This document shows, in pieces, positions 13,001-16,000 of a stretch of 24,160 nt of DNA. The position numbers were made by a program, and so were the translations under genes. The notes under the pieces were generated by a model, which saw nothing but the letters and a program-made list of their open reading frames with translations, did no database searches and was not told the origin of the DNA. Every line of letters begins with the position of its first letter. Position 1 is the stretch's first letter. The DNA lies in contig NW_003143797.1 in assembly GCF_000003605.2 (NCBI RefSeq), forward strand, positions 303,434-327,593, in the 5' to 3' direction. This DNA is from Saccoglossus kowalevskii (lineage: Eukaryota; Hemichordata; Enteropneusta; Harrimaniidae).

Positions 13001-16000
13001 AGATTAGACTACTGATGTCTGGCAACAAAAACGGAAACGACAGACAGACGACAACCATAAACTCACGGATATTATCAAAGGAAGAAAACAAACATATATG
13101 ATATCAATACTATGTCTGATAATTATCGTATGACTATATAATAATGTCTACTACTGAACCTAGGGTTACTTACTCTAGTAGACGGCACTCTGTCCCCGCA
13201 ATTCCAATGTGTATGTCATTGCCAGTTAGTAAATGTTCACCCGTTATTTCTATAACGGTACCTCCTGAGCGCGGCCCTTTCCTCGGATCGAAGGATCTCA
13301 ACTTAGGTACCTTGACATAAATAACACATTTTTACACATTATAAACTAATATCATTAGGTTAATCGAACTCATTATCACCCCCATCGTTATCATCATAAA
13401 TGTAATCATGAAATCTGAAATAGTTATTGTCAAACGTAACATCGTGTACGTAATGAAAGTAAAACCAATCGGAAAACATTTCTACTTACCACAAAGCTAA
13501 ATCTCTCCGTAGAGTTAAGCCAGAACGATCCTGATAATAATTGGAAATTAAATATTTGGACGGCGACTGGAGACGACAGCTCATTACCCGGTGGGTCCAA
13601 TGTACACATTAAAGAATAACTGTAATATCTTGAACAGAAAGATATAGTAAAATATATTAAACTCGCGTTTAAGTGTTTAATTTAAATTACAATTTCTTGC
13701 TAGTCTTAAACGAAAAAAAATTTAAATGGCAAAATTCTAATTGGGCACGCGTTGTTAAATATAATCTTCGAAATCCAAATAAATCGAGGAACAATTTTAA
13801 TTTTTACCTAGTAGTTTTTACTTTTGTTTGAGATGGCGACGTTGTGCTGATGCTGGAACTTCGAGGTTCTGTTGTATGTGATGATGGTGTGGTTGTGCTG
13901 AACGGTTCTCCGCTAACGATCCTTTTTCGCCTCGGTGGGGGTAAATCACCATTATAACCGAACTCGTAATAAGAATAATCATCGTCACTAAATGTGTTAT
14001 CTAAAATCTGCACATCACCACAAATTATATTATTGCTCACGTAGACCGCTGCTGGCTGATCAAAATAGAAGCGTAATGGAATTTCGGTGGTGACGTTTAC
14101 CATCAACTGTGTTGCATTGTGTGTTGCAAGTCCGGATTTAGGGGAAAACTATTAATAAATAATAAATACATATAATATAAGATAAACGACAAAACGTGTG
14201 TTCAGTTGCTTCACTTGGGAAATTAAATGTAGCACAAGGGAAAATGAATGATAAATACGAACCTGCACTGTGAAGTTCCCCACGAGGTCAATATAGATAA
14301 ATACGAACCTGCACTGTGAAGTTCCCCACGAGGTCAATATAGATAAATACGAACCTGCACTGTGAAGTTCCCCACGAGGTCAATATAGATAAATACGAAC
14401 CTGCACTGTGAAGTTCCCCACGAGGTCAATATAGATAAATACGAACCTGCACTGTGAAGTTCCCCGCGAGGTCAATATAGATAAATACGAACCTGCATTG
14501 TGAAGTTTCCCGCGAGGTCAATATAGATAAATACGAACCTGCACTGTGAAGTTCCCCGCGAGGTCAATATAGATAAATACGAACCTGCACTGTGAAGTTC
14601 CCCACAAGGTCAATATAGATAAATACGAACCTGCACTGTGAAGTTCCCCACGAGGTCAATATAGATACAATGCTCGTAAATTACTCCTAATTCAATTCTA
14701 TTCTGCAATTCAGACGTTGTTGGACGTAGCCATTTTCCACTCGAACACTGAGTTTGTAAAGTACACCTATAGAGGAAAGATAATATGCTTACTATCAGTT
14801 ACGTCATACTGATCGCATTTGCATTTGTGGACTTGATCGTGGATGTTGTGTCGAGTGATATTGTCTGCGTATCTATAAGAATTGTAGCTATACCGTGCTC
14901 ATGTGAATTGTTAACCAGATATTATACTAATTTACTGTAAAACTATTGATATGTTTACGAGATATGACAGACATACACATAAACGCAATACAACTCTTTG
15001 CTGCCGAGTGAAGACGGACTGAAAGAAAAGAAGCCCATATAGTTCACCCAGTACCAACCAAATCTGCTTAGAATACTATAACCATTAGTTCATAAAGCTT
15101 GCCTAACATTTCTAAACTATCTATCAGCATCGATATGAGAAACTGTAAATTTCAGTACACAATTACCCCAATGAAAATGAGAACACATAGTCTTTTTGAA
15201 TCTCTGGGCATAAGGGCAACCAGTGACTGCATGTAAGTAATCCAAGACAGATTAAGTGAACAAAATCATACCTATTGTGTAGCTCGCACCAACCGCAGAC
15301 TGGATTATACAGGCACCCATTACAGTCTTGTACGTATACTGTGCAGTTAAACAGTGGAGATTTTGCGACAACAGTTATGTTTTGTGATTTCTAGAAATAG
15401 AACAGAAACGTAAGTATATGAGTACACTACCTTCATGATGCAACCACGCCATGTATGTAACACGCCGATATTATACATAAATGGCACTGGTTGTAAATAA
15501 AATAATGTATTTGCTTATTAATCCGAGGATGAGTTAAACATCTCACGTGGATAATACAACATATAAAATATGAACTGAAACAGCAGGGTTTCCAACATTG
15601 TCTATGCCCGGTTGTCCTCGCCAGCTACATTGATGCGCCCTCTGGTGGCAAAGTATTTAGAAAAAACAAACGAGATTCTGATGTGACAATCTTCGAGATA
15701 GCGTAAGTATGTTTACAGATCAGACTTTTCATTTTTACCCCAAATTACACAAAATGTTTTGAATGACAAACAAATATTAAATGAGCAAATCTGAGAGAGA
15801 ACAAGTTACGTGATAATAAGAGTGAAAGCAATACAGGCTTGTGTGTACAATATGTGTTCAAGTAAAAATAAAAGAGAAATAAAACAAATTACTTCAACTT
15901 GACGATTTGTGAACGTGTAAATATGTTCACCCTCTGGGTGAACTCTGATCTGCTGTACCATTTCAGAACATATATGATATGGCGGATACTCTCTAAAGTA

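What the first reader, a model, noticed from the sequence alone, without database searches (positions are those of the whole stretch)
14250..14663. Nine tandem copies of a splice donor: a minisatellite made from an exon-intron junction
Seen: nine exact-length 46-bp units, each with the last 33 bases of the PSI/IPT exon and the first 13 intron bases, all keeping CAG|GTTCGT. That donor is weak (no purine at +3). The first donor in transcript order gives the normal frame; reading on meets a TGA at 14610-14612 after six codons. Inference: any use of a downstream donor, or slippage in copy number, adds 46 n bases and a stop, which would give a message for a secreted Sema-PSI protein or one degraded by nonsense-mediated decay. 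Two opposite effects are possible: many donors may rescue a weak site, or copy number may tune the share of truncated receptor. I know of no described receptor with a donor array of this kind.
Basis: partly seen in the sequence, partly recalled or inferred. Interest (0 to 1): 0.87.

Follow-up and report, generated by a model that had tools for sequence, protein, structure and literature searches.

The report
Tandem splice-donor repeats in receptor gene
In an animal gene for a MET-like receptor, the spot where one exon meets its intron has been copied nine times in a row; this is a clean new example of a kind of repeat already described in lancelet and human genes, and it offers a natural test of how a cell picks one splice site out of nine identical ones.

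Summary
Nine 46-bp units (14667-14254, minus strand), each carrying CAG|GTTCGT, occur here and nowhere else in the genome letters searched. The gene is a MET/RON-like receptor. A same-genome paralog has one junction at the matching position and phase, so copy 1 is most likely the authentic donor. Donors 2-9 all meet one TGA, leaving a 550-residue Sema-PSI product. The donor is weak: 2 of 32 reference donors score lower. Best reading: a "mirage" minisatellite, i.e. a tandem repeat of an exon-intron boundary, as reported in lancelet Adh, globin, TnC and PGBD5 genes, where splicing is said to be undisturbed; human IFI6 has a minisatellite whose repeats do serve as donors. So the kind is known; the frame-shifting unit and the receptor are new details. 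No sign of selection on the donors: four substitution events, none in the donor 9-mer (chance 0.42). Two features keep regulation open: copy 9 keeps the ancestral 114-nt intron, and a predicted hairpin fits donors 1-8 but not 9. RNA reads would decide. Caveats: assembled copy number, an apparent frame break in exon 13, species unidentified.

The parts
14254..14667 (-). minisatellite: nine 46-bp units TATCTATATTGACC...CAGGTTCGTATT spanning the end of exon 5 and the start of intron 5 (followed by a partial TATC at 14253-14250)
14631..14766 (-). exon 5 (end of PSI, start of the next extracellular domain), authentic donor CAG|GTTCGT after 14631 = copy 1
   Evidence: open frame and phases; paralog exon 5 ends at the matching place and phase
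14610..14612 (-). TGA reached by every message that uses donor 2 to 9
14263..14585 (-). duplicate donors 2-9 (last exon bases 14585, 14539, 14493, 14447, 14401, 14355, 14309, 14263)
14149..14262 (-). 114-nt intron left when donor 9 is used; equals the inferred intron length before expansion (482 - 8 x 46)
13808..14148 (-). exon 6, acceptor TTATTAATAG|TTTTCC, phase 0
14684..14685 (-). in-frame cryptic donor GGA|GTAATT; use would drop 18 codons including the eighth PSI cysteine
6921..21476 (-). hand-built model of a MET/RON-like receptor gene, 20 exons (Sema, PSI, two TIG/IPT matches, TM, tyrosine kinase); 5' end not determined

Best explanation
A mirage-type minisatellite. A 46-bp stretch straddling the exon 5 donor, bounded by TATC on both sides, was duplicated (inferred: slippage or microhomology) and then expanded by unequal exchange. 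The authentic splice is copy 1 (14631) to 14148; copies 2-9 are decoys. Most splicing is expected to stay at copy 1, because exon 5 is short and its exonic signals sit upstream of copy 1; the share that leaks to other copies meets one early TGA and should mostly be removed by nonsense-mediated decay. Shown: array, frame, stop, homologous exon end in the paralog. Inferred: origin, dominant use of copy 1, decay, near-neutrality.
For: Units, spacing and uniqueness. TATC at both array ends. Paralog on contig C455 has one junction, C-LVLTYIGMYSIR|GTAAAA then FEPDIG, against [19 protein letters not shown] then FSPKSG; local score 51 with this junction, 26 with the upstream donor. Five of nine units identical, four substitution events in all, none in the donor 9-mer, expected by chance at 0.42, so nothing calls for selection on the donors. 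Published mirages have the same anatomy, AG/GT signals in many units, unstable copy number, and are said not to disturb splicing (PMC3087553, PMC3902484; passages). Minisatellites are not rare here: 3 arrays with period 15 or more and 3 or more copies in 117,583 non-N bases sampled.
Against: phmmer against solved plexins scores the model with the upstream donor higher (39.7 against 33.6 bits for Plexin-A4), and codon statistics of the 54-nt segment are only mildly exon-like. Paralog identity across the junction is low (8 identical of 33 aligned pairs), and its exons 5-7 were placed by eye because tblastn gave no hit above the printed cut. Copy 9 keeps the ancestral short intron and predicted folding favours it in two of three settings, so downstream use may not be rare. 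In IFI6 downstream repeats are used. No RNA evidence.
Confidence: 0.7

Rival explanations
1. Copy-number switch: use of donors 2-9, above all donor 9, makes a regulated share of messages for a secreted Sema-PSI decoy or for decay.
For: All eight extra donors lead to one stop leaving 550 residues with the Sema-PSI part. Donor 9 leaves a 114-nt intron, like the ancestral one. A predicted -6.4 kcal/mol hairpin joins each donor to the next unit and cannot form at donor 9. IFI6 precedent.
Against: Accessibility values are all low and the contrast vanishes with the smallest folding window (donor 3 0.0148, donor 9 0.0137). Array fold is not exceptional (z -1.88, 5 of 100 shuffles as stable). No selection signal. 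Lancelet mirages are said not to give aberrant mRNAs.
Confidence: 0.1
2. The array is wholly intronic: the real donor is GGA|GTAATT at 14685, in frame, and the nine CAG|GT sites are never exon ends.
For: Equal or better donor score (0.37 against 0.06); higher plexin score.
Against: Paralog alignment; loses the eighth PSI cysteine; segment GC and codon use lean exonic.
Confidence: 0.08
3. Rescue: several weak donors together recruit U1 and define the exon better than one would, with copy 1 used.
For: Weak donor; a downstream donor is reported to aid exon definition like an enhancer (PMC8724738, passages).
Against: Not tested; folding predicts donors 1-8 are less, not more, open than in the single-copy form in two of three settings.
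Confidence: 0.06
4. Self-correcting array: each unit's CAG|GT also acts as acceptor, so a wrong donor choice is spliced out again in multiples of 46 nt.
For: Each unit holds AG|GT and a TTGAC branch-like motif (motif recalled, sequence); intron gain from duplicated AGGT is a published model (PMC4974935, start of abstract only; PMC3087553).
Against: Pyrimidine share before the unit's TGCAG is 0.41, below all 19 acceptors of the gene (0.53-0.82); before TTCACAG 0.53, equal to the lowest.
Confidence: 0.02
5. Assembly artefact in copy number or in the array as a whole.
For: The genome has many N stretches (0.437 of 14 sampled stretches); four identical copies in a row cannot be counted by short reads; one lancelet mirage was misassembled in a draft (PMC3087553).
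Against: Units 2-5 carry their own variants, so a true array of several units exists.
Confidence: 0.04

Closest known systems
Lancelet 'mirages' (Adh3, globins BflGb6 and BflGb9, TnC, PGBD5)
   Same: Minisatellite-like tandem copies of an exon-intron boundary that repeat the splice signal; homogenised units; at either exon end (PMC3087553, PMC3902484; passages).
   Different: Here 46 bp and nine near-identical units, frame-shifting, at a receptor gene, and probably not in a lancelet: the mitochondrial contig has ND1, inverted COX1, tRNA-Gln, tRNA-Ala, COX2, unlike the Asymmetron orders printed in PMC2034537.
Human IFI6 (6-16, G1P3) minisatellite
   Same: A tandem repeat that provides several splice donors at one exon end (title of Turri 1995 and a sentence in PMC4526556; the paper itself is not held).
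   Different: There downstream donors are used and give encoded isoforms; here each downstream donor gives the same stop, and use is unknown.
Human internal tandem repeats at exon-intron boundaries in segmental duplications
   Same: Minisatellites at boundaries that change splicing (PMC2812944, abstract and passages).
   Different: There linked to recent human paralogs and new introns; here the intron exists already and the paralog has no array.
Intron gain by tandem duplication of AGGT (Rogers model; potato RdRp case)
   Same: Duplicated segment holds AG|GT (PMC4974935, listing and start of abstract only).
   Different: Unit lacks a good acceptor and an intron was already present.

Membership tests
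mirage minisatellite | tandem units span an exon-intron boundary | tested here: met
mirage minisatellite | units repeat the AG/GT splice signal | tested here: met
   9 of 9 units
mirage minisatellite | concerted evolution, units more alike inside the array | tested here: inconclusive
   units 1, 6, 7, 8, 9 identical; 3, 4, 5 share one change; the edge-against-centre pattern is not clear
mirage minisatellite | copy-number polymorphism or somatic instability | not testable with these tools
   one assembly only
mirage minisatellite | regular splicing undisturbed | not testable with these tools
   no RNA data
mirage minisatellite | so far named in lancelets (not a defining trait) | tested here: inconclusive
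   mitochondrial gene order on L040 does not fit a lancelet, but the contig could be foreign
IFI6-type multi-donor minisatellite | downstream repeat donors are used | not testable with these tools
   no RNA data
intron gain by AGGT duplication | duplicate supplies a working acceptor | tested here: not met
   weak pyrimidine tract, 0.41 (TGCAG) and 0.53 (TTCACAG) against 0.53-0.82 in 19 acceptors; a proxy only
MET/RON receptor | tyrosine kinase closest to MET/RON | tested here: met
   MET 321.9, RON 313.9, MER 249.1 bits; one EGFR entry (9p9u) 324.1 bits but with no stretch passing alone
MET/RON receptor | Sema, PSI, IPT ectodomain | tested here: met
   PSI 29.9 bits, TIG 25.8 above and 20.1 just below cut-off 20.9; no Pfam Sema hit, but sequence match to plexin and MET Sema-PSI chains
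MET/RON receptor | one open frame through the membrane segment to the kinase | tested here: not met
   apparent frame break in exon 13 near 9300-9280; lesion or assembly error

The most novel reading that the evidence does not exclude
The array is a length-dependent splice switch. Growth of the array moves the authentic exon end away from the acceptor while copy 9 keeps the ancestral 114-nt intron, and hairpins between neighbouring units hide donors 1-8 but not 9. A substantial, copy-number-dependent share of messages would then stop after Sema-PSI and yield a secreted decoy of a MET-like receptor or be destroyed.
Probability: 0.1. Interest if true: 0.8.

Novelty: new member of a known kind. 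Interest (0 to 1): 0.42.

Why it matters
Nine identical donors at 46-nt steps, all sharing one acceptor and one upstream exon, are a natural experiment on donor choice: copy 1 wins if the exon is the unit recognised, copy 9 wins if the short intron is. Each outcome is readable as a discrete junction, and individuals with other copy numbers would give a dose series. It also appears to extend boundary minisatellites, described in lancelets, to another animal lineage and to a signalling receptor, where a change of donor would separate a full receptor from a secreted fragment or no protein.

Tried and rejected
Upstream donor 14685 as the true exon end: favoured by phmmer against plexins and slightly by donor score, set aside on the paralog and the missing eighth PSI cysteine. 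Codon and GC tests of the 54-nt segment: codon score 0.88, with 41% of exonic windows at or below and 14% of stop-free intronic windows at or above; not decisive. Dispersed copies of the unit: none found. RNA families: 0 matches in the window. Exceptional array fold: z -1.88, 5 of 100 shuffles as stable. A second boundary array by chance sampling: a 67-bp x 3 array in L030 holds a GTGAGT but no gene was shown there; an 85-bp doublet in L019, at the paralog, fell by my coordinate arithmetic inside an intron. A reverse-transcriptase-like reading of ORFs in intron 2: no Pfam match in 3 of 3 ORFs. Lancelet identity: not supported by mitochondrial order. Echinoderm identity: AAA stands at positions I recall as conserved lysines in ND1, COX1 and COX2, against the echinoderm code.

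Full report
What is there. On the minus strand, nine 46-bp units run from 14667 to 14254, followed by a partial TATC. With up to 3 mismatches the motif is found nine times in the window's own genome, all here; part of that genome reads N, so this covers only the letters held. Five units (1, 6, 7, 8, 9) are identical; unit 2 has one change, units 3, 4 and 5 share one, unit 4 has two more: four events, none in the donor 9-mer, for which chance alone gives 0.42. The array therefore shows recent homogenisation but no evidence that the donors are kept by selection. TATC stands at both ends, which suggests, but does not prove, an origin by slippage or microhomology.

The gene. I built a 20-exon model by hand from open frames, splice signals and phases. 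Some borders have alternatives (donor of exon 6, acceptor of exon 7) and the 5' end is not fixed. Kinase exons match MET (321.9 bits) and RON (313.9) well above MER (249.1); one 678-residue EGFR entry totals 324.1 bits without any single stretch passing the threshold. The ectodomain matches plexin and MET Sema-PSI chains, Pfam PSI and TIG, once above and once just below the cut-off; Pfam gave no Sema hit. Membrane and juxtamembrane sequences lie in different frames inside exon 13, while the paralog's exon is contiguous and open there: a real lesion or an assembly error.

Which donor is the real exon end. Two in-frame candidates exist: 14631 (copy 1) and 14685 (GGA|GTAATT). Against my final choice, phmmer with the 14685 version scores higher against Plexin-A4 (39.7 against 33.6 bits), and codon statistics are only mildly exon-like. 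In favour of 14631 is a paralog in the same genome, contig C455, found through its kinase exons. tblastn placed 13 of the 21 exon pieces queried above the printed cut, but not exons 5-7; I placed those by eye from open frames, splice signals and phase. Paralog exon 5 ends C-LVLTYIGMYSIR|GTAAAA and continues FEPDIG; the window gene reads [19 protein letters not shown] and FSPKSG. The local score is 51 with this junction and 26 with the upstream one, at 8 identities in 33 aligned pairs. The same segment supplies the eighth PSI cysteine (number recalled). The paralog shows no array at this place. I take 14631 as the ancestral exon end at about 0.9.

Donor strength and outcomes. Reference set: 18 other donors of this gene and 14 of the paralog, all that I could place with a phase check. 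T at +3 occurs in 1 of 32. The array donor scores 0.06; 2 of 32 real donors, left out in turn, score lower, and 10.5% of 1,528 GT sites on the minus strand score at least as high. So it is weak but within range. Using donor 1 keeps the frame through exon 6. Donors 2-9 lengthen exon 5 by 46 to 368 nt, leave introns of 436 down to 114 nt, and all end at one TGA, 550 residues after the MMLRV methionine. Donor 9 leaves 114 nt, which equals the intron length inferred before expansion; 3 of the 18 other introns are 131 nt or shorter.

Folding. Each donor can pair with the next unit in a hairpin of -6.4 kcal/mol that donor 9 lacks. In local folding the donor 9-mer is more open at copy 9 than at copies 1-8 in two of three settings (0.0075 against 0.0001-0.0013; 0.0020 against 0.0001-0.0005), but not in the third, where copy 3 (0.0148) exceeds copy 9 (0.0137). 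The single-copy form gives 0.0084, 0.0038 and 0.0008 from the smallest to the largest setting. The 18 other donors range from 0.0002 to 0.17. The whole array is not exceptionally stable (z -1.88, 5 of 100 shuffles as good). This is prediction only.

How common such arrays are here. In 20 stretches holding 117,583 non-N bases, TRF found 3 arrays with period 15 or more and 3 or more copies; 6 kinase-hit loci with 20,103 bases gave none of that size. At such a density some arrays should include an exon end by chance; I could not measure how many.

Comparison with the literature. Tandem repeats spanning exon-intron boundaries are called mirages in lancelets: Adh3, globins BflGb6 and BflGb9 (PMC3087553, passages), TnC and PGBD5 (PMC3902484, passage). 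They are reported to be unstable in length, and splicing is said to stay regular although many units hold AG/GT signals. In human IFI6 a minisatellite provides several donors, and two downstream repeats are used (PMC4526556, passage). Neither primary paper (Turri 1995; Canestro 2002) is held. Human boundary repeats that change splicing are described in PMC2812944 (abstract and passages). So the kind is known. What differs here: a frame-shifting 46-bp unit, nine near-identical copies, a MET-like receptor, and probably an animal outside the lancelets, judged from mitochondrial gene order on L040 against PMC2034537 (passages). The species itself is not identified.

How it most likely works. Most likely the array is a near-neutral boundary minisatellite: copy 1 is used, other copies leak at a low level, and their products end at one stop and mostly decay. 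The regulatory reading (0.1) is kept open by the preserved 114-nt intron and the hairpin asymmetry. The position of the array makes the question clean: nine discrete junctions report directly whether exon or intron definition decides.

Noticed in passing
window 9300-9280 (exon 13, minus strand): Apparent frame break between the membrane segment and the juxtamembrane segment; kinase exons downstream are open. Real lesion or assembly error.
   Followed up: partly
window 14685/14684: In-frame cryptic donor GGA|GTAATT scoring as well as the array donor; its use would drop 18 codons with one PSI cysteine.
   Followed up: yes
window 10367-10518 and the N run that begins near 10519: AAAT microsatellite of 38 copies beside a gap, just upstream of the exon 11 acceptor.
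   Followed up: no
L020-L022 (C455:180501-210500): A second MET-like receptor gene in the same genome with the corresponding intron positions where compared.
   Followed up: partly
L040 (C4830, mitochondrial): COX1 is inverted between ND1 and COX2, with AAA apparently coding lysine; an unusual gene order.
   Followed up: partly
L032:4608-5309: 23-bp minisatellite of 30.5 copies; context not examined further.
   Followed up: no
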